A DNA stretch of 64,000 bases, from the NCBI GenBank assembly GCA_002696035.1, contig NZQV01000016.1:124001-188000 (forward strand), read 5' to 3'. A program made the position numbers and the translations under genes. Every line of letters begins with the position of its first letter. The first letter of the stretch is position 1. Positions 3,249-64,000 of this stretch are shown piece after piece. A model generated the notes under the pieces. It was not told where the DNA came from. It made no database searches and saw nothing but the letters and a program-made list of their open reading frames with translations. Origin of the DNA: Balneola sp. (lineage in GTDB: Bacteria > Bacteroidota > Rhodothermia > Balneolales > Balneolaceae).

Positions 3249-4289
3249 TTAATGAAGTTCCGACAGCTTATACCGCTTAACAACTGGCCCCTCTCCTAAA
3301 GTGTGTAGTAGATATACAAAATCATCCGAAATTTTGGCTTGTTTCGAAGGTATAGGTAGTTCAATCTCTTTCAGAAAGTCTCCGGTAAACCTGTTATAAA
3401 TCAACAGCCTTTTTGCATGGTTTGTTTTCTCAATAAGAGCCTCAAAATTCACCATGTATTTCATTTGTTGAAACTTGGAAATAGTTTCACCATTTAGTAG
3501 AACATATACAAACTTGTCATTGGCGGCAATATCTCTTGCTCCTTCTGGATGTTTCCCCATTACCGGCAGGCTATATCTCCCACTTTTCTCAGATTCAGGA
3601 TCAACAGGAGGTAATGGGATTTTAGCAGGCTCATCATTAATAAAAACTATTCCATCTTCGTTTATTCCAATAATCATTGAAGAAAACTCAAATGTCACAT
3701 ATAGCATCCCATCATAGTTGTCATAAAACAATGTTTGTAGTAGCGTGAAATTAGCAAGTGGTAGAAGTTCTTTTTGCTCATTTCTATTTACCGCCCATAA
3801 CAAAGAACCCTCACTTATTTTGTTATTCTTTATCCTCCAAGCTTTAAAAACTTCTTCCGAAAAATCAACGGTAAGAAGAGTGCTATCATTTATTAATCCA
3901 GCCTGGTAACTACTTCCGATTGTCGCATCTCCTCTTACATCAGTTTTATATTTTAAATCTGAAGAATACCGCATCAGTCTCTTTCGCCCAGCATCCCATA
4001 GTAAAAAATCCCCATTCGAGAATGTAGTACTCCGCTTATAGTAACTTGGACTAACTTCACCCGGCCCACGGCCACTCCTTATCGATCCCTTTAATAATTC
4101 ACTTGAGAATTCGAAAAGTTTTATCGTCCGCTTTTCATCAGCTATATCATTAATTACGATCTCTCCATCTCCAGCCAACCATAGATTGTATGGATTATAA
4201 ATCATCTCCCCAATTTGGGCTGAAGTTTCTCCAATCAGAAACACAGAAATTAAAAATGTGAAAAAAAAAGTTTTTATGCGTGTACCCAT
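3249..4289 (-). CDS. Secreted 6-bladed beta-propeller protein
   Basis: A 346-residue protein with an N-terminal signal peptide (MGTRIKTFFFTFLISVFL..., cleavage probably after SAQ near residue 25), so it is exported. The body shows the repeat pattern and the SGRGPGEV motif of the Bacteroidota '6-bladed beta-propeller' family, which often sits beside small secreted Cys-rich peptide genes. That is the context here: it is the last gene of a three-gene leftward cassette (MauE/DoxX-like protein, Cys-rich peptide, propeller). A stem-loop lies between the peptide gene and this one, so its expression may be lower than that of the peptide. Its ligand and role are unknown. Confidence 0.8.
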   Translation of the reverse strand: MGTRIKTFFFTFLISVFLIGETSAQIGEMIYNPYNLWLAGDGEIVINDIADEKRTIKLFEFSSELLKGSIRSGRGPGEVSPSYYKRSTTFSNGDFLLWDAGRKRLMRYSSDLKYKTDVRGDATIGSSYQAGLINDSTLLTVDFSEEVFKAWRIKNNKISEGSLLWAVNRNEQKELLPLANFTLLQTLFYDNYDGMLYVTFEFSSMIIGINEDGIVFINDEPAKIPLPPVDPESEKSGRYSLPVMGKHPEGARDIAANDKFVYVLLNGETISKFQQMKYMVNFEALIEKTNHAKRLLIYNRFTGDFLKEIELPIPSKQAKISDDFVYLLHTLGEGPVVKRYKLSELH

Positions 4290-55281: not shown

Positions 55282-56280
55282 CTACTTAAAAGCCAATTGA
55301 TTTATTCTCTCCATTAATTCTTTCATTCTGTCAATTAGCTTATCAAATGATACAGAATCACCGTGAATCATACTTTCCTGCATCTCACGATAATCGTCCT
55401 TCCATTGCTTTATAGAAGCGTCGGGCGGTACAAGGTTTATGGTTCCCGGCAAATGTTTTTTGTAATCAATCCCACTGATTTTTGTCAAATGCTTTCGGTG
55501 GTGAATGATATCCATATAAAGATCTTCATCATCCAGTGCCTCTTTCCCGTGGTCTGTATCCATGATTGCTTCAACGTCATACAAATGTCGGCTTAATCGT
55601 TCTGCTCTCATTTCATCCGGGTTCTTCTGAAATTCCTCATGTAACAAAAACACCTTCTCTAAGAATGTGCGTCTGGGTAGCACACAAGGAATTTTAACCG
55701 GTAACAAATCAATTTCTAACTGTGGAAATACGGAACCAACCAAGGGAGTAAGTTCTTTTTCTTCGTTCGGTTCGATTAAGGAACGAGCATTTATTTCAAT
55801 CAATACTCTTGGTGGGAGGTATTTTACAGACTCTGTAACAGCAGGAAATCTAACCTCAATGGTTGAAGGATCTTCGTCTGAGTTATCTGATTCCCAAACC
55901 TCTACTTTAACATCAGCTCCTTTTTCTTGAAGGTTATTAACCAATTCCGGTGTTAACTTTTCCAGAACAAATTCCCGAATCGCTTTACGAAGTCTTGTCC
56001 TTTTGCTGCTTCCAAGTTTTCCATCAAAACCAAATGCTTTACGGTCTACAGCTAGGTCTACATCTTCAGAAAACCGCTGGATCAGATTCCAACCTTTACT
56101 TAGAGAGGTCCCTCCTTTAAAAACCATATTTTCGGCCTGCTCAAGTTCAAAAACAGATTCTAATACCAGTGTTACCCAAAAGTCTTTCTCAATAGCTACG
56201 GGCGGTAAGCCTTCATTGGCAGCTACCTGTTCATATACCTGTTTCTTTCTCCCGTCTTCTACCTTTAGCCAGTCAATCAT
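55282..56280 (-). CDS. AbiEii-type nucleotidyltransferase toxin
   Basis: Toxin of a type IV AbiE pair: a nucleotidyltransferase (MenA-like) that can halt growth on phage infection by modifying nucleic acid (tRNA for MenA). Motifs: VFKGGTSLSKGWNLIQRFSE with K55-GGTS, and the catalytic Asp pair D73/D75 in SEDVDLAV. A RHLYDVEAIMDT helix is the family's later conserved block. The ATG at 56280 gives 332 residues and overlaps the antitoxin stop (ATGA). An in-frame start at 56316 would add 12 residues. This strand order, antitoxin then toxin, is standard. Confidence 0.9.
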   Translation of the reverse strand: MIDWLKVEDGRKKQVYEQVAANEGLPPVAIEKDFWVTLVLESVFELEQAENMVFKGGTSLSKGWNLIQRFSEDVDLAVDRKAFGFDGKLGSSKRTRLRKAIREFVLEKLTPELVNNLQEKGADVKVEVWESDNSDEDPSTIEVRFPAVTESVKYLPPRVLIEINARSLIEPNEEKELTPLVGSVFPQLEIDLLPVKIPCVLPRRTFLEKVFLLHEEFQKNPDEMRAERLSRHLYDVEAIMDTDHGKEALDDEDLYMDIIHHRKHLTKISGIDYKKHLPGTINLVPPDASIKQWKDDYREMQESMIHGDSVSFDKLIDRMKELMERINQLAFK

Positions 56281-56876
56281 TGTTCTATACTTTGTTCCAT
56301 TATTTTCCGAATCCATACCGGAGCAAGTTTGATATCATGTTTTAAGTGCTCCGGTTTTTCTTTTTTCAGTATTTCGGTGATTTTATCTTTTTGTTGTTCA
56401 GATACATTCCCTTTTCCAATTTCTTTTAAAGCCTGAATAACCAACGAACTGATTTCTCCCTTCGCTTTAAGATTTTTGGGAACCGTTCTCTTGAACTTAA
56501 TCTTACGGTTTCCAACCTGAATACTTCTTTGTGAACCATCAGTGAGATATACAGCATTTAAAGGAACCTGGGTTGAAAGGCCCAATTTATTCATTGCCAG
56601 TGTGCCGGTTGGTATGATCTTCGCCTTATCTCTTTTTGCTATCGCTTCAGCAATTTTTTCTATGGATGGTTTTAATACCCCAAGCTGTGGGTCTGTTTTA
56701 GGATATAAGTAAATACCATGGGCAAGCCTTACCAGCTCTCCATCATCCTCAAGGCGAACTAAAGCTTGCCTAACTGCTTCACTGGAGCCAATTTCCAGAA
56801 AATCTTCCGGGAAAAATATTTTCCCACGATTGTAGTTTTTAATCTTATTAAGTATTTGTTCTTCTGTGCTTTGCAT
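56277..56876 (-). CDS. AbiEi/DUF6088-type antitoxin
   Basis: Antitoxin of the AbiE pair. A winged HTH at the N-terminus (FFPEDFLEIGSSEAVRQALV, RLEDDGELVRLAHGIYLYPK) is followed by an AbiEi-type C-terminal domain (PTGTLAMNKLGLSTQVPLNA, YLTDGSQRSIQVG and IKFKRTVPKN). Family members repress their own operon by binding inverted repeats. A fitting 10-base inverted repeat lies 20 bases upstream at 56896-56924. Its stop overlaps the toxin start. It has 199 residues, typical for DUF6088. Confidence 0.9.
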   Translation of the reverse strand: MQSTEEQILNKIKNYNRGKIFFPEDFLEIGSSEAVRQALVRLEDDGELVRLAHGIYLYPKTDPQLGVLKPSIEKIAEAIAKRDKAKIIPTGTLAMNKLGLSTQVPLNAVYLTDGSQRSIQVGNRKIKFKRTVPKNLKAKGEISSLVIQALKEIGKGNVSEQQKDKITEILKKEKPEHLKHDIKLAPVWIRKIMEQSIEQ

Positions 56877-57064: not shown

Positions 57065-57799
57065 CTATCTTGATACTGTTTCAAATGCCCTATTGGTTTT
57101 TATGACCAAGTCAATTTTATCTTCTAATTCTTTTTGTGAATAAATAATCTTCCCAAAATGCTTTATTTGAACTTCAGGATAATTGGAATCTATTTGGGTT
57201 GATTGTTTTCTTAAAAAACTCTTCAATTTTTTGCCAACAGTTAACTTGTACTTTTCTGAATAATATAATGTGTTAATGAGGCATAGCTGATGATTTGGAT
57301 TTGGATAAAATGAAATTTCCAACTCTTTTTTTCTTAGAAAATTTAAGAAGTCCTCATTATAGATAAATTCTTTCCTATTTAAATGATATATAACTGAGGA
57401 AAAATTGAAAAACGATGTATTTGGAATGACCTTAAAAAGCTTATAGTCGATTTCGTTTTGGTATTTAAAAGCCCATGTATTTTTGGTTTCCCAAAGATCC
57501 ACGTCCATTTCTCCAATCTTTATTTTGAATCCACCAAAACTATTCTCTCTATATTCATAATTCTCGATAACCTCCCTAATCCTAGAAATATCTTCAACTA
57601 CAAAATCTATATCTCGTAGTTCATGGCTATTTAAAAAATAATTCCTTATAACCCCACTAAAAACATATATGTCTACTCTCTCTATAGTCTTATTTATGAA
57701 TGTAGTTAATTCAAAAGGAGTTATTGAAGTTAAATAATGATAGAATGATAACTCCTGATCCTTTATAACTTGTTTTATTTCAGATAATTTTTTGGCCAC
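57065..57799 (-). CDS. Nucleotidyltransferase-fold protein paired with the HD gene
   Basis: A 244-residue protein. DIYVFSGVIRNYFLNSHELR followed by DIDFVVED (residues 44-70) is the polyA-polymerase-head pattern: G-VIRN in place of GGxxRD, then D63/D65. A third acidic pair lies in EMDVDLWE (D99/D101). All three catalytic positions are therefore plausible. It ends in a basic helical region. The start codon lies 20 bases inside the end of the upstream HD-domain gene, so the two proteins are translationally coupled. No substrate is known. By the company it keeps, a nucleic-acid- or nucleotide-modifying toxin is possible. Confidence 0.6.
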   Translation of the reverse strand: MAKKLSEIKQVIKDQELSFYHYLTSITPFELTTFINKTIERVDIYVFSGVIRNYFLNSHELRDIDFVVEDISRIREVIENYEYRENSFGGFKIKIGEMDVDLWETKNTWAFKYQNEIDYKLFKVIPNTSFFNFSSVIYHLNRKEFIYNEDFLNFLRKKELEISFYPNPNHQLCLINTLYYSEKYKLTVGKKLKSFLRKQSTQIDSNYPEVQIKHFGKIIYSQKELEDKIDLVIKTNRAFETVSR

Positions 57800-59168
57800 T
57801 TAATTTTTGGTAATGTTTTAACGCAAATTGATCCGTCATTCCTGTTATAAAATCGACTATAATTCTCAATTTATAATAGTCACTAAGTTCTTCAAAATTC
57901 TCTAACTCATCATCCCCCTCAATTCCATTTTCTAAAAAAGCAGATAGTTTTATACTCTTTGAAATTAGATTTAGAGCCCTTCGCTTATAGTGTTTTGATC
58001 CTCTAAATAGAAATTGAATGTAGTATTCAAGCAATCCAGTAAGAACGGCATGTCCAGTTAATTCTAAAAACTCTATTTCCCTTCTTTTAAAGATATTTTC
58101 AAAACAAAATAAGTCTAATGTACCAGCAACATTATTTGAATCATCGTCTAAAAGTTCTGATTTATAAGTTCCTTTTTCGATTGATTCAATATGCTTTATA
58201 AAGTTTTCAACAGTTAAATTAACCAAATAGTCAATCAAACTGATTCTAAGCTTAATAATCTTAGTATTTCTTTTATTTATCCCTTTTACCTTGTCAGCAT
58301 TTCTAAAAAGTTTTTTAAAAAGTGACTGATCTTTTATTTTTTCTTCAAAATATTTTCTAATAAAATTATAGTCATAAAGTCTTTTATTATACCCGTCCTC
58401 AATATCCATTACATAATAACAGATAGAATCCGCAGCCTCCATAAGAAAAGCTAATGGGTGACGTAAATATTTACCAGAGATTTCTAGACCACATTCTGAA
58501 ACAACTTTTTTAAATACTTCTTTTTCAGATTGGAATACTCCAATTTTTTCTGTGTAAAATTTCTCATTAGTTGGCTTGCCAAAATTTGGGTACTTCAAAA
58601 AGGAAGCTAGTGTGTTGCAAGTTAGATTAAGCCCATATGTATCCTGAAGTATTTGAAGTTTCGTAAGGACTCTAAATCCCTGAGCATTACCATCAAAGGA
58701 AGTGAAGTCTCTCATCTGATCCTCATTTAACTCAAAATCATAAACCTTTTTGCCCTCCTCTTCTCTAAAAAGATTTGAAAAATATTGACTTATAACTGTT
58801 TCTCCAAAGTGTCCAAATGGAGGGTTTCCTATGTCATGTACTAAACATACATTTTTCAATGTAGTTGGAATACTCCTTATTAAATAATCTTTATCCTGAT
58901 TAGTTCTTCTTAAAAACTCCTCATTCTCTACAATTCGTATCCCAAGAGAGTACCCTATTGCTAGAACCTCAAGCGAGTGAGTTAAGCGAGAATGAATGTT
59001 ATCGTCTGAGGTAAGTGGAAAAACTTGTGTTTTGTCATGCATCCGGCGAGTCGCAGGACTAAAAATCAATCTTCCAAAATCACTTTCAAATGGATTTCTT
59101 GCATCACCAGAATAATCTTTTGATGATGGTCTAAGTCGTTTACTACTTAATAGTTTATTCCAGTCCAT
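57780..59168 (-). CDS. dGTPase-like HD-domain nucleotide triphosphohydrolase
   Basis: A 462-residue HD-superfamily protein of the dGTP triphosphohydrolase group. The N-terminal RNPFESDFGRLIFSPATRRM is the typical Dgt opener. Metal ligands are H64 (SRLTHSLEV), H111/D112 (CLVHDIGNPPFGHFGE) and a later Asp in the helix ADSICYYVMDIEDGYNKRL. Such enzymes deplete dNTPs, and some block phage. The downstream nucleotidyltransferase-fold gene overlaps its end by 20 bases, making a two-gene unit. It is 241 bases downstream of hsdR, a gap with nothing recognisable. Confidence 0.87.
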   Translation of the reverse strand: MDWNKLLSSKRLRPSSKDYSGDARNPFESDFGRLIFSPATRRMHDKTQVFPLTSDDNIHSRLTHSLEVLAIGYSLGIRIVENEEFLRRTNQDKDYLIRSIPTTLKNVCLVHDIGNPPFGHFGETVISQYFSNLFREEEGKKVYDFELNEDQMRDFTSFDGNAQGFRVLTKLQILQDTYGLNLTCNTLASFLKYPNFGKPTNEKFYTEKIGVFQSEKEVFKKVVSECGLEISGKYLRHPLAFLMEAADSICYYVMDIEDGYNKRLYDYNFIRKYFEEKIKDQSLFKKLFRNADKVKGINKRNTKIIKLRISLIDYLVNLTVENFIKHIESIEKGTYKSELLDDDSNNVAGTLDLFCFENIFKRREIEFLELTGHAVLTGLLEYYIQFLFRGSKHYKRRALNLISKSIKLSAFLENGIEGDDELENFEELSDYYKLRIIVDFITGMTDQFALKHYQKLSGQKII

Positions 59169-59409: not shown

Positions 59410-62400
59410 TTATGCTTCTACAAGTTCTTTCGCAATCATTTCAGCCTGCTTCAATACCGTTTCAGTTGCTAATTTTTGCATATCAGGTGGATAACCAAAC
59501 TGTCTAAGTGTTCTTTTAACAATGACCTTCAACTTTGCTCTGACACTTTCTCTAATAGTCCAATCAATTGAAGCATTTTCTTTGACCCTCTCATAGAGCA
59601 CAACTGCTAATTCTCTTAGTTTATCTTGCTTCATTACTTCTCGAGCACTTTCATTGTTTGCTACAGCAGTGTAAAAAGCATATTCAAAATCAGATAACCC
59701 CATTTCTTTTGGTTCATTATCCATCTTGATAACTTCTCGAGCATGATTGACTAATTCATCGATAAACTCAGCTGCCGTTAGAACCTTATTCTGATATCTT
59801 TTAATTGAGTCCTCAAGCATCTCCATTAAAGATTTACTCTGAACAAGGTTTTTCTTCATTCTAGCTTTCACCTCATCATTAAGTAGTTTTTTTAATACTT
59901 CAATGGCAATGTTTTTATGTTCCATTTCCTTTACTTCGAGAAGAAAGTCTTCTGATAACACTGATATTTCAGGCTTCTTAATACCTGCAGCATCAAAAAC
60001 ATCTACAACTTGGTCGGAAACTAATGCTTGGTCAATTACCTGACGAATAACAGATTCAATTTCTTTATCAGTATTGCCTCCACCTGTGCTATCGAACTTG
60101 ACTAAACGAGCTTTTACAGCTTGGAAGAATGCAATTTCATCTTTTGCATCTAATGCCTCTTCATGAGGTAGGGCAATTGAGAATGCTTGTGATAATGCTG
60201 TTACTTGGTTTACAAATCGTTTTTTCCCGTCTTCTAATCCAAGTATGTGATCTTCAGCCGAAAGAATTAGTGTCAATTTTTTAGAAGTTTCTGCATCGAA
60301 ATAATTTTCGTATGGAAAGCCATGAAACATTTGAGATACTATTTCCAATTTCTCAAGCATCAATTGAACAGCTTCTTCTTGTGTATGTGCCGGATCACCT
60401 TTGCCACCTGCTTCTGAATAAAAGGAAAGAGCCTTCTTTAAGTCTGAAGCAATACCTAAATAGTCAACGACCAGACCAGCAGGCTTATCTTTATAAACCC
60501 TATTAACTCGAGCTATAGCCTGCATTAAATTATGACCCTTCATAGGCTTATCTATGTACAGCGTATGCATGCTAGGGGCGTCAAATCCAGTGAGCCACAT
60601 ATCACGAACAATAACCAACCTTAGCTCATCATTTGGATCTTTCATTCTTTCGGCTAACATCTTGCGTTGATCCTTGGTTGTATGATGCTTAGCCATTTTA
60701 GGGCCATCTGAAGAGCTAGCTGTCATAACAACTTTAATCACACCTTTATGTAATTCATCGGAATGCCAGTCAGGTCGTAATTGAATGATAGCCTCATAAA
60801 GCTCTGTTGCTATTCGACGAGACATACTAACAATCATGCCCTTTCCGCCTTCTACGACGTCTCGTTGCTCCCAATGCTCTACAATATCTTTCGCTACAGT
60901 CTCAGTCCTCTGCTCACTGCCAATAAGGGCTTCTAACTGTGTCCACTTAGCTTTTGCTTTTTGTGATTCAGAAAGATCATTGTTGTCAAGTTCTTCATCT
61001 ACTTCTTCTACAAGCTTTCTTCCCTCATCACTAAGGCGGATTTTTGCCAACCGGCTTTCATAAAATATTTTTACAGTTGCTCCATCCTCTACTGCTTGCG
61101 CTATATCGTAAACATCGATATAATTCCCGAATACTGCTGGTGTATTGACATCAGTTTTTTCAATAGGAGTCCCGGTAAACCCAAGATAGGTTGCATTTGG
61201 TAAAGCATCCCGCATGTATTTTGCAAAGCCATACACTGTTTTTTTACCAATAATGTTTCCTTCTTCATCCTTATCATCAATTGTTTTTGCCTTAAAACCA
61301 TACTGAGTTCTATGTGCTTCATCAGCTATGACAACAATGTTAGAACGATCAGAAAGTTCTTCATAAACATTACCTTGGTCCGGCTGAAATTTATGGATGG
61401 TTGTAAAAACAATCCCGCCAGAAGCTACTTTAAGCAATCCCTTAAGATTTTTCCTAGATTCAGCTTGTTTTGGTTCTTGTCTTAACAATTGCTTTGAAGA
61501 AGCAAAAGTATCAAAAAGCTGATCATCAAGATCATTTCTGTCTGTAATAACAACAATGGTAGGGTTGTCCATTTTTAAGACAATTTTTCCAGCAAAAAAC
61601 ACCATTGATAATGATTTCCCACTACCCTGAGTATGCCACATAACCCCACCTTTTCGGTCACCGACTGGTTGTTCCTCGACACCTGCAACACCGTATTCTT
61701 GTGGATCTACTTCTACCCTATCATTTGAATTAGATATCAACTCTTGTTTTGATACAAATCCAGAAGCTCTTAAAGTGGATTTAACAGCTTTATTAACTGC
61801 ATAGTATTGATGATAGGCAGCAATTTTCTTGACTGTTTCAACCGTAGTTACACCCGTTCCTGGATCTTCTCTTTTAGACTTCTCAAAAACAGTAAAATAT
61901 CGAATAAGATCGAGTAAAGTTTCTTTGTTCAGCATTCCTTTAATCAGTGTTTCTAATTGACCTGTTAAAGGTGATGCTTCATTTTCTCCGTCAGACGTTT
62001 TCCAAGCCATAAACCTAGAAAACCCAGCTGATAAAGAGCCCATTTGAGCTTCTAACCCATCTGATATAACTAATAGTCCATTATAGGTGAATAGGTTGGG
62101 AATAACCGATTTGTAAGTTTGTAATTGTCGGTATGCAGATTTTATAGAAGCCGTATCGCTCACTGCATTTTTTAGTTCCATTACTACTAAAGGAATACCA
62201 TTTACGAATATTATGACATCAGGTCGTTTATTCTGATTATCCTCTACAACCGTAAACTGATTTGAAACTATAAACTCATTATTCTCAGGATTATCAAAGT
62301 CTACAAGCCATACAAGATCACCCCTATCATTTCCATTAATTTGATAACTGACATTAACACCTTCTGTTAAAAAGCGGTGAAAATGTTCATTGTTTGTAAT

Positions 62401-62646
62401 TAGTTCAGGAGAGTTACTACGCTTAATCTGTTTAATAGCCTCTTCAATAGCCAGGATTGGAATATCCGGATTCAATTTTCGAAGAGCAGAAGACAAACGA
62501 TCTTCTAAAAGAACATCCTCAAACGACTTCCTTTCAGGGTTTTCACTTTCAGGAGCTACTTCGGGCCCGTATATATATTTAAACCCTTGCTCCTCAAGCA
62601 AGTTTATAGCCATTAACTCTATATCATTTTCAGTTATTTTACTCAT
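59410..62646 (-). CDS. hsdR: Type I restriction enzyme R subunit
   Basis: A 1078-residue translocating restriction subunit. The N-terminal nuclease has RPDVIIFVNGIPLVVMELKN at about residues 144-160 (the PD-ExK acidic and Lys positions). The motor has Walker A in WHTQGSGKSLSM (about 340), DEAH in VIADEAHRTQYG (about 440), FTGTPIEKTD (about 490) and VDYLGIASDL. The helical C-terminal part is 250 residues. It needs HsdM and HsdS to act, and neither is in the window. The start is 4 bases after the kwaB-like stop. Hence it belongs to the same transcript as the Kiwa genes. Confidence 0.95.
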   Translation of the reverse strand: MSKITENDIELMAINLLEEQGFKYIYGPEVAPESENPERKSFEDVLLEDRLSSALRKLNPDIPILAIEEAIKQIKRSNSPELITNNEHFHRFLTEGVNVSYQINGNDRGDLVWLVDFDNPENNEFIVSNQFTVVEDNQNKRPDVIIFVNGIPLVVMELKNAVSDTASIKSAYRQLQTYKSVIPNLFTYNGLLVISDGLEAQMGSLSAGFSRFMAWKTSDGENEASPLTGQLETLIKGMLNKETLLDLIRYFTVFEKSKREDPGTGVTTVETVKKIAAYHQYYAVNKAVKSTLRASGFVSKQELISNSNDRVEVDPQEYGVAGVEEQPVGDRKGGVMWHTQGSGKSLSMVFFAGKIVLKMDNPTIVVITDRNDLDDQLFDTFASSKQLLRQEPKQAESRKNLKGLLKVASGGIVFTTIHKFQPDQGNVYEELSDRSNIVVIADEAHRTQYGFKAKTIDDKDEEGNIIGKKTVYGFAKYMRDALPNATYLGFTGTPIEKTDVNTPAVFGNYIDVYDIAQAVEDGATVKIFYESRLAKIRLSDEGRKLVEEVDEELDNNDLSESQKAKAKWTQLEALIGSEQRTETVAKDIVEHWEQRDVVEGGKGMIVSMSRRIATELYEAIIQLRPDWHSDELHKGVIKVVMTASSSDGPKMAKHHTTKDQRKMLAERMKDPNDELRLVIVRDMWLTGFDAPSMHTLYIDKPMKGHNLMQAIARVNRVYKDKPAGLVVDYLGIASDLKKALSFYSEAGGKGDPAHTQEEAVQLMLEKLEIVSQMFHGFPYENYFDAETSKKLTLILSAEDHILGLEDGKKRFVNQVTALSQAFSIALPHEEALDAKDEIAFFQAVKARLVKFDSTGGGNTDKEIESVIRQVIDQALVSDQVVDVFDAAGIKKPEISVLSEDFLLEVKEMEHKNIAIEVLKKLLNDEVKARMKKNLVQSKSLMEMLEDSIKRYQNKVLTAAEFIDELVNHAREVIKMDNEPKEMGLSDFEYAFYTAVANNESAREVMKQDKLRELAVVLYERVKENASIDWTIRESVRAKLKVIVKRTLRQFGYPPDMQKLATETVLKQAEMIAKELVEA

Positions 62647-62650
62647 ATCA

Positions 62651-63670
62651 TCATTCTGCTGCTGCTGACATTTCAGTTACAACAGCATTTTCATCACTTG
62701 TTGCTTCCTCTGACTCTTCTTCATTTTCGACTCCATCTTTAGCCAGACTTTCATAGTGGAGCTTTGTTAATTCAGAGGTTAAAAAATCATCATTAAGTAG
62801 TTTGACAAATAAATTCTTGGATACATTTGTATCAAGTGAAAACTGACTATCATCATCTGTATACCTCATCTTTCCTTTTATTTTGGGGTGCGTTTTAGAA
62901 AATGAGATAATCTGGTCATTTGGTATACCTCTTTGAATAACTGGTGAGCCTTTAGCCACTTTTGTTAATTTCCTAGCAAATGTTACATCGTCAATAAGTT
63001 CAGATAAGGCATCAATATTACTTACAATACTTAGTTCTTCTATGGCTTCCAATCCAGCTAATGCCTCTCTCTTAATAACGTCATGAAAACCTAAACTTCT
63101 CTCAATAGAGGTTAGATCAGTCACAATGATGTCCTCGCCGATTTTTAAAACTTGAAACCTTGGGCTAATCCTGAGAAGCTGTTCTTTAAACCTTTCAAAT
63201 CTAGTTTGAGATTTCCAGATTATATACCCTCCTCTACCTAAAACTTCTACTGGCGATAGCTTTTTATACAACGATAATTCTTTCTCATCTTTTGCCAGCA
63301 CAACTATCAAAGAATCAATTTCATCCAGTTGGTATTGATTAAAGGCAAATTCATCTAAGTCATCATTTCCAATTACCGAATTGAGATATGCCAATTCATC
63401 TGGGAGTTCGAGGTCATATTCGTAAAAACATTTCCCCCTTTCGTCAGCTGTAGATAGAGGAATTACTGAATGATCATCTAGATTTATAACACTGTTATGG
63501 ATTGAATTTGCAAACAATTCGGTAATTTCAGATAAGTTATCTGCTTTAATATTAAGCTTTTTGGGCTCACCCTCCTCCTTTAAAACTGCATAAATAGCAA
63601 TTTCCAAGCCATCTAAGTCATCTAAGTCGATTAGTTCTGTTAAAGCTTCATCAAGTTCGTTTTTATTCAT
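62651..63670 (-). CDS. kwaB: Kiwa defence protein KwaB (DUF4868)
   Basis: DUF4868-family protein of 339 residues (E. coli KwaB about 315), with ELDEALTELIDLDDLDGLEI at the N-terminus, a beta-rich centre (KLSPVEVLGRGGYIIWKSQT, RFQVLKIGEDIIVTDL), and VAKGSPVIQRGIPNDQIISF near the C-terminal third. The final 25 residues are acidic. KwaB binds DNA and acts with the membrane sensor KwaA against phage. The start is 3 bases after the kwaA stop, and hsdR begins 4 bases after its own stop: a compact three-gene operon. Confidence 0.85.
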   Translation of the reverse strand: MNKNELDEALTELIDLDDLDGLEIAIYAVLKEEGEPKKLNIKADNLSEITELFANSIHNSVINLDDHSVIPLSTADERGKCFYEYDLELPDELAYLNSVIGNDDLDEFAFNQYQLDEIDSLIVVLAKDEKELSLYKKLSPVEVLGRGGYIIWKSQTRFERFKEQLLRISPRFQVLKIGEDIIVTDLTSIERSLGFHDVIKREALAGLEAIEELSIVSNIDALSELIDDVTFARKLTKVAKGSPVIQRGIPNDQIISFSKTHPKIKGKMRYTDDDSQFSLDTNVSKNLFVKLLNDDFLTSELTKLHYESLAKDGVENEEESEEATSDENAVVTEMSAAAE

Positions 63671-63673
63671 TTT

Positions 63674-64000
63674 CTAGACCTTATATGCGTAATATATTCT
63701 ATCATCTAATTTCAGATACTTCACCCTATCATCTAAGTTTAATTGATCTCTTGTTATTAAGATTATTTCACTTCGAGATTCACCTGATCTGAAATCCCCC
63801 GATACTTTAAAAAGCTTGAACCTCAGAATGGCCAGAGTTGGATTTGCGTAGAACAAATCTGTACGTACATAAATTATACCAATAACAGTAAGTATAATAA
63901 TAAATACAGCTTGATACCTAACATCATCAAATTGAAAACAAACAAGTGGAATGATATACGTTGTTAAAAAAGTGAGGTGTTCATAATCAATATTCTTGAT
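63674..64000 (-). CDS. kwaA: Kiwa defence protein KwaA, C-terminal part (runs off window)
   Basis: The reading frame is open to the right edge and continues beyond it. The visible 108 residues are IKNIDYEHLTFLTTYIIPLV, a VFIIILTVIGIIYV helix, then TDLFYANPTLAILRFKLFKV and a C-terminal cytosolic tail (LNLDDRVKYLKLDDRIYYAY). Two transmembrane segments and the FYANPTLA motif are as in KwaA, the four-helix membrane sensor of Kiwa. It is immediately upstream of kwaB. The N-terminal half is not in the window. Confidence 0.8.
   Translation of the reverse strand: MKNIDYEHLTFLTTYIIPLVCFQFDDVRYQAVFIIILTVIGIIYVRTDLFYANPTLAILRFKLFKVSGDFRSGESRSEIILITRDQLNLDDRVKYLKLDDRIYYAYKV

What the first reader, a model, noticed from the sequence alone, without database searches (positions are those of the whole stretch)
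59410..64000. Kiwa genes fused in one operon with hsdR (kwaA-kwaB-hsdR)
Spacings of 3 bases (kwaA/kwaB) and 4 bases (kwaB/hsdR) show a single operon. In the window there is no hsdM or hsdS. Either Kiwa is nested in a type I restriction locus whose methylase and specificity genes lie beyond the right edge, or this is a Kiwa variant using an HsdR-like motor/nuclease. Both are worth knowing, since Kiwa and type I restriction cooperate against phage in other settings.
Basis: partly seen in the sequence, partly recalled or inferred. Interest (0 to 1): 0.65.

Follow-up and report, generated by a model that had tools for sequence, protein, structure and literature searches.

The report
Kiwa nested inside restriction-modification operon
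Two genes of the known anti-phage system Kiwa sit between the modification and cutting genes of a type I restriction-modification operon, a slot that related bacteria fill with other defence genes, so this is one more case of stacked defences rather than a new kind of Kiwa.

Summary
In detail: on the minus strand kwaA, kwaB and hsdR follow each other with gaps of 3 and 4 bases, and all three pass curated cut-offs. The puzzle is an edge effect. Just past base 64000 lie a 283-aa abortive-infection-like gene and a 704-aa HsdM whose C-terminus most likely carries one HsdS-like target-recognition domain. The operon is hsdM(half-S) - abi-like - kwaA - kwaB - hsdR. The HsdR is ordinary: its 81% identical relative sits with hsdM and hsdS and no Kiwa. 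In this HsdR family 25 of 27 evaluable operons carry other genes between hsdS and hsdR (among them Hachiman, Shedu, GmrSD-like and Abi_C genes); here, and in one MAG contig, Kiwa is such cargo. The two embedded Kiwas are not sisters in a tree. Defence systems embedded between hsdS and hsdR, and Kiwa co-transcribed with type I RM, are in print. Less ordinary leftovers: the HsdM/half-S fusion, and Kiwa within 5 kb of large methyltransferase genes in 5 of 10 evaluable genomes.

The parts
59410..62646 (-). hsdR, 1078 aa, type I restriction subunit: PD...ExK, Walker A, DEAH and QAIAR motifs present
   Evidence: TIGR00348 600 bits; HSDR_N, SWI2_SNF2, T1R_D3-like and T1RH-like_C; motifs
62651..63670 (-). 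kwaB, 339 aa
   Evidence: NF041623 E 1.1e-109; PF16162; PDLC00233; solved KwaB 9o0i_H E 2.8e-31
63674..64000 (-). kwaA, 190 aa, part inside the window; the gene runs on to L002:5246, 246 bases past the edge. Further upstream, outside the window: the 283-aa abi-like gene (L002:5288-6139, -) and hsdM of 704 aa with a fused single TRD (L002:6164-8278, -); window position = L002 position + 59000
   Evidence: kwaA: NF041622 E 1.6e-69, PDLC00219, solved KwaA 9mrg_A E 1.3e-41. 283-aa gene. hsdM: HsdM_N and N6_Mtase; residues 491-704 against a profile of 32 HsdS hhalign 87.8%, E 3.3e-6, and against HsdS halves 73.3%, where the best of 150 null segments gets 19.6%; Pfam does not see that domain; relatives end near 514 aa

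Best explanation
A type I restriction-modification operon, hsdM(half-S) - abi-like - kwaA - kwaB - hsdR, that carries a canonical Kiwa pair as embedded cargo in the slot before hsdR. Shown: gene order, spacing, family identity, and that this slot carries different defence genes in relatives. Likely from profile evidence: the fused single TRD. Inferred: the five genes are one transcript, so that the layers are expressed together; KwaA senses phage at the membrane and KwaB binds the injected DNA and blocks its replication and late transcription (published mechanism of Kiwa, from review passages), while HsdM(S)+HsdR cut unmethylated DNA, each layer working on its own; the abi-like protein may be a third, suicide layer.
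For: Gaps 24, 41, 3 and 4 bases on one strand and no terminator-like site on the operon strand inside kwaA-kwaB-hsdR. HsdR 81% and HsdM 72% identical to those of one operon of G203, hsdM-x-hsdS-four genes-hsdR without Kiwa. Slot of 300 bases or more with other genes in 25 of 27 evaluable operons from the HsdR search (40 of 77 listed places fetched, 13 of the 40 without an hsdM in the stretch). G295 has hsdM-hsdS-abi-like-hsdR without kwaAB, and G117 the same with one more ORF between hsdM and hsdS. Ten cargo proteins scanned, chosen by eye among 24: best PADLOC matches SduA, PD-T4-2, NsnA, NsnB, HamB, PDC-S06; one Abi_C; three weak or none. A second embedded Kiwa in L029, not sister to this one in the tree. 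Precedents: DarTG2 between hsdS and hsdR (PMC12255303, passages), TgvAB (PMC11411939, passages), Kiwa co-transcribed with type I RM and DarTG in Shewanella (PMC12016545, sections 8 and 9).
Against: No transcript or phage data for this locus. The specificity part is not a standard separate HsdS, so activity of the RM part is unproven. Kiwa lies near methyltransferase genes of several kinds more often than random placement gives (5 of 10), which leaves room for a functional link.
Confidence: 0.84

Rival explanations
1. Kiwa is coupled to the restriction system: it is a back-up that fires when the RM part is blocked by phage antirestriction, as PrrC does for EcoprrI.
For: PrrC precedent of a gene embedded in a type I locus and triggered by its inhibition (PMC12707154, passages). 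Kiwa within 5 kb of large methyltransferase genes in 5 of 10 evaluable genomes, 0.09 expected under random placement. Methylase, HsdS, kwaA and kwaB overlapping by 1-4 bases in L023, methylase 7 bases before kwaA in L022.
Against: In 17 of 24 non-redundant Kiwa loci no RM gene was found nearby (small reference set, some contigs short). AbiEii in the same 10 genomes lies within 5 kb in 1 of 9 matches (distances read by eye), so the excess over another defence gene rests on small numbers. A Kiwa pair cloned without RM genes protects against lactococcal phages (PMC11514479, passages).
Confidence: 0.1
2. A Kiwa variant in which HsdR is the third component, a motor or nuclease acting on DNA held by KwaB, independent of HsdM.
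For: 4-base gap between kwaB and hsdR.
Against: hsdM is in the same operon. HsdR and HsdM have the same closest relative, in one operon without Kiwa. Of 24 non-redundant Kiwa loci only this one and L029 have kwaAB directly before hsdR (one ORF between in L029), and both have methylase genes.
Confidence: 0.03
3. The RM part is a decayed remnant: a deletion fused hsdM to the back half of hsdS, and only Kiwa still works.
For: Of 81 listed HsdM matches only this one and an 887-aa frame with a stop codon inside the match exceed 620 aa; relatives have a separate hsdS, mostly 360-460 aa.
Against: All five frames are open, the HsdM and HsdR motifs looked for are present, and single-TRD S subunits that act as homodimers are known (PMC3874165, passages).
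Confidence: 0.12

Closest known systems
Kiwa (KwaA-KwaB)
   Same: Both proteins over the curated cut-offs, near full-length match to solved Kiwa chains, order kwaA-kwaB
   Different: Sits inside a type I RM operon instead of alone
DarTG2 embedded between hsdS and hsdR of enteropathogenic E. coli (RRDM island, PMC12255303)
   Same: A whole defence system between the specificity and restriction genes of a type I operon
   Different: Cargo is Kiwa plus an abi-like gene; the S part is one TRD fused to HsdM; no RptR-type repressor was looked for
Shewanella putrefaciens CN32 GItrmA: RM_Type_I, Kiwa and DarTG co-transcribed (PMC12016545)
   Same: Kiwa and type I RM in one operon (there shown co-transcribed, here inferred)
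   Different: There Kiwa follows the three RM genes by locus tag (3523-3525, then 3526-3527); here it lies between hsdM and hsdR
TgvAB in the VPI-2 type I RM cluster (PMC11411939); PrrC in EcoprrI (PMC12707154)
   Same: Embedded accessory defence genes
   Different: Other cargo; PrrC is triggered by RM inhibition, which is untested here
Type 1 1/2 methyltransferases with single-TRD S subunits (PMC3874165)
   Same: One TRD per chain, expected to pair as a dimer
   Different: Here the TRD is fused to HsdM and a type I HsdR is present

Membership tests
Kiwa | KwaB family protein (DUF4868) | tested here: met
   NF041623 366 bits, cut-off 200; 9o0i_H E 2.8e-31
Kiwa | KwaA family membrane protein | tested here: met
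   NF041622 233 bits, cut-off 100; 3 hydrophobic stretches pass a simple window test
Kiwa | kwaA and kwaB adjacent, same strand | tested here: met
   3-base gap
Kiwa | membrane supercomplex and phage protection | not testable with these tools
   needs experiments; known from review passages
Type I restriction-modification | HsdR with nuclease and SF2 translocase | tested here: met
Type I restriction-modification | HsdM with AdoMet and NPPF motifs | tested here: met
   PF12161 and PF02384, motifs; but TIGR00497 218 bits is under its cut-off of 243
Type I restriction-modification | HsdS with two TRDs | tested here: not met
   no separate hsdS in the operon, no PF01420 match on the contig; one TRD-like domain fused to HsdM
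Type I restriction-modification | methylation and cleavage of DNA | not testable with these tools
   needs methylome and restriction assays
Defence system embedded in a type I RM operon | complete other system between methylase/specificity and restriction genes; related operons with other or no cargo | tested here: met
   the host operon is filed as type I by its HsdR and HsdM, its S part departs from the type
HEPN ribonucleases (283-aa gene) | HEPN fold with R-x4-6-H motif (motif recalled) | tested here: inconclusive
   DUF4145 below cut-off in homologs only; R245 and H249 invariant but spaced R-x3-H, R242 is K in 2 of 11

The most novel reading that the evidence does not exclude
Kiwa is recurrently and functionally joined to DNA-modification systems: restriction operons of unlike classes (type I; methylase with an HSDR_N_2 domain plus HsdS; methylase with a PLD-helicase) recruit kwaAB as a membrane-side effector or sentinel, and the operon here is one such composite with an abi-like third layer and a dimeric M-half-S methylase.
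Probability: 0.1. Interest if true: 0.6.

Novelty: new member of a known kind. Interest (0 to 1): 0.3.

Why it matters
It adds Kiwa to the systems found inside type I RM operons and shows that, in one HsdR family of this phylum, the gap before hsdR is nearly always filled with other genes, several of them known defence genes, which makes the gap a place to look for unknown ones. If Kiwa really depends on the restriction genes, the operon would be a ready test of how two layers are coupled.

Tried and rejected
Rejected: Kiwa-HsdR motor variant (hsdM upstream, closest HsdR in an operon without Kiwa). Doubtful: hsdS supplied by the second type I system of the genome; G000:C11 carries its own hsdR-, hsdM- and hsdS-like genes, action in trans cannot be excluded. 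Led nowhere: KwaB in viral contigs (no relative confirmed), in phages (no match); in plasmids two Emticicia records only, without RM genes by annotation or by the reference set. The 283-aa protein has no solved relative (one match at E 0.82, chance level). Not run: structure prediction of the 283-aa protein and of HsdM, which lie outside the window and come from a tool not on that tool's list of allowed sources; KwaB was not folded because the sequence match was enough. Outside this phylum Kiwa was sought by the genome-contig scan and in plasmids, phages and viral contigs only. The Cell 2025 Kiwa paper is not held and was not read; its content is taken from passages of other papers. Literature searches for Kiwa with type I RM; the Payne 2024 preprint on embedded defences was seen only as a citation.

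Full report
Observation. The window is G000:C20:124001-188000. On the minus strand hsdR (59410-62646), kwaB (62651-63670) and kwaA (from 63674, running 246 bases past the edge) follow each other with gaps of 4 and 3 bases. KwaA and KwaB pass the NCBIfam cut-offs, HsdR passes TIGR00348, PADLOC agrees for all three, Pfam for KwaB and HsdR (no Pfam hit for KwaA), and both Kiwa proteins match solved Kiwa chains along nearly their whole length.

What lies beyond the edge. The 20-kb stretch L002 (window position = L002 position + 59000) shows the rest of the operon: a 283-aa gene (L002:5288-6139) and hsdM (L002:6164-8278), all on the minus strand, with 24 bases from hsdM to the 283-aa gene and 41 from there to kwaA. 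The scan found 4 terminator-like sites, as many as in shuffles (mean 4.4); the one on the operon strand lies inside hsdM. Co-transcription is inferred, not shown.

HsdM and the missing hsdS. HsdM has HsdM_N and N6_Mtase domains and AdoMet and NPPF motifs; its NCBIfam score is a little under the hsdM cut-off. Relatives end near residue 514, this one runs to 704. Pfam's HsdS model does not see the tail, phmmer finds nothing and blastp gives only E 0.029 and 0.040 against two HsdS, but hhalign of residues 491-704 against a profile of 32 HsdS gives 87.8%, E 3.3e-6, over columns 180-364, the back half of HsdS. Against a profile of HsdS halves the tail gets 73.3%, while the best of 150 random segments of other proteins gets 19.6%; the null was run on that second profile only. 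So the tail is most likely a single TRD. Of 81 listed HsdM matches in 72 of 394 genomes only this one and an 887-aa frame with a stop codon inside the match exceed 620 aa. The one hsdS that Pfam finds in the genome belongs to another system on contig C11 with its own hsdR- and hsdM-like genes. Single-TRD S subunits are known to act as homodimers (PMC3874165, passages).

The slot before hsdR. HsdR relatives at E <= 1e-200 are in 71 of 394 genomes. I fetched 40 of the 77 listed places; in 27 of the 40 an upstream hsdM lies in the stretch, and in 25 of these 27 at least 300 bases with other genes lie between hsdS and hsdR; two, L131 and L139, have none. Five more operons reached through the 283-aa gene bring it to 30 of 32, but those were chosen for having cargo. 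ORFs were called mechanically and HsdS by blastp, so slot sizes are approximate. None of the loci has a KwaA or KwaB match. The closest HsdR (81%) is in hsdM-x-hsdS-four genes-hsdR (L106). Ten cargo proteins, chosen by eye from the 24 coordinates, gave as best PADLOC matches SduA (Shedu), HamB (Hachiman), PD-T4-2, NsnA, NsnB and PDC-S06 (RloC-like by recall); one is Abi_C/AbiJ-like; a PIN-domain, a SatD-like and a Schlafen-like protein have weak or no PADLOC match. Thus the slot is a cargo bay in which known defence genes are common. G295 shows hsdM-hsdS-283-aa homolog-hsdR without kwaAB, and G117 the same with one more ORF between hsdM and hsdS: the state expected before Kiwa was inserted, although the order of events is inference.

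Kiwa elsewhere. KwaB over the cut-off is in 3 of 394 genomes of the phylum sample (12 of 394 at E <= 0.001) and in 1 of 244 of the class, the window's own. One, L029, a 4.7-kb contig binned as Methanosarcina (binning not checked; it has Ns near the hsdS/kwaA junction), reads hsdM end - hsdS - kwaA - kwaB - 116-aa ORF - hsdR start, the HsdR part 58% identical over 198 residues. Its 116-aa ORF matches residues 100-217 of a 230-aa protein that alone fills the slot in L111, L116 and L117; the L111 copy is Abi_C. In L025 (Marinoscillum pacificum) kwaA-kwaB-SduA_C-213 aa-hsdM-hsdS-FRG-hsdR are on one strand. A KwaA+KwaB tree puts L029 with L033 (96%), not with the window's Kiwa; other supports go down to 28-60. 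The tree left out L038 as incomplete, L016 and L017 as duplicates, and the divergent pairs L018-L024. Two separate entries into this kind of slot are likely.

Kiwa and methyltransferase genes. Of the 12 genomes, two were dropped (G290, a 3.4-kb contig, and G192, a weak match in a 1379-aa frame). In the other 10 a large methyltransferase gene lies within 5 kb of kwaB in 5 (G000, G054, G176, G137, G055); 0.09 would be expected from their number per genome, chance of 5 or more 1e-8 if genes lay at random. I left out frames of 250-305 aa (taken as PrmC-like from memory) and one 388-aa match under the cut-off. Defence genes cluster, so that null is too easy: AbiEii in the same genomes is within 5 kb in 1 of 9 matches, read by eye, and 5 of 10 against 1 of 9 is too few to prove a special link. 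In L023 methylase, HsdS, kwaA and kwaB overlap by 1-4 bases; in L022 a methylase is 7 bases before kwaA; in L024 a PLD-helicase and a methylase precede kwaAB; in L020 kwaAB is divergent from hsdM-hsdS-hsdR. Over 24 non-redundant Kiwa loci (the 10 above, 12 more, 2 plasmids) 7 have RM-type genes: the window's, L020, L022, L023, L024, L025 and L029. The reference set was small and some contigs are short, so this is a lower bound.

The 283-aa gene. Homologs are in 20 of 394 genomes, the own one included; 17 of the 19 others were fetched. Six of the 17 lie in an hsd slot (L061-L066). Some homologs share its N-terminal part but end in Abi_C (PF14355, both of the two scanned); others, like this one, end in a domain with invariant DFRN-x-IHP, which scores below cut-off as DUF4145 in 4 of 10 proteins scanned, not in this one. 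An RNase role is a guess; the motif spacing is not the canonical one.

Comparison with print. Defence genes between hsdS and hsdR are documented: DarTG2 in enteropathogenic E. coli, and a gene pair at the same site in four other genomes, where the authors call the site a potential recombination hotspot (PMC12255303, passages); TgvAB in V. cholerae and RloF (PMC11411939, passages); PrrC in a type IC locus (PMC12707154, passages). Kiwa co-transcribed with a type I RM and DarTG, the cloned block being active against T1, T4, T7 and EEP but not T5, is in PMC12016545 (sections 8 and 9). I did not find Kiwa between hsdM/hsdS and hsdR described in searches, which cover open-licence papers only and of which I read few hits.

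Verdict. A nested locus of a known kind: interest 0.3. The coordinates and spacing were right; the mystery came from the window edge.

Noticed in passing
L002:6164-8278 (beyond the window edge): HsdM fused to a single HsdS-like TRD, with no separate hsdS; rare among 81 listed HsdM matches.
   Followed up: partly
L023:5107-10302, L022:9569-14264, L024:1966-10355: Divergent Kiwa pairs at the end of methyltransferase operons of different kinds (methylase with HSDR_N_2 domain + HsdS; N6/Eco57I methylase; PLD-helicase + methylase).
   Followed up: partly
L002:10214-12917: Cassette with a 400-aa protein (kinase-like plus deoxyribosyltransferase-like by eye), QueC (PDLC00911) and OGG (PDLC00910), names known from type IV CBASS (recalled); no cyclase among the proteins scanned.
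   Followed up: no
window 57065-59168: dGTPase of a PADLOC family (PDLC02374) and a 244-aa gene overlapping it, downstream of hsdR on the same strand.
   Followed up: no
window 55282-56876 and L002:13914-15541: Two AbiEi/AbiEii pairs lie on either side of the operon, so it lies in a defence island.
   Followed up: no
L002:8377-9910: CoiA_N-domain protein and a Mug-like uracil DNA glycosylase directly upstream of hsdM on the same strand.
   Followed up: no
L159:982-11743: Second restriction system of the genome (hsdR-, hsdM-, hsdS-like) near a 391-aa gene that looks like an integrase by eye.
   Followed up: partly
L029:3736-4086: 116-aa ORF equal to the back half of a 230-aa cargo protein of other operons, perhaps a remnant left where kwaAB came in.
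   Followed up: partly
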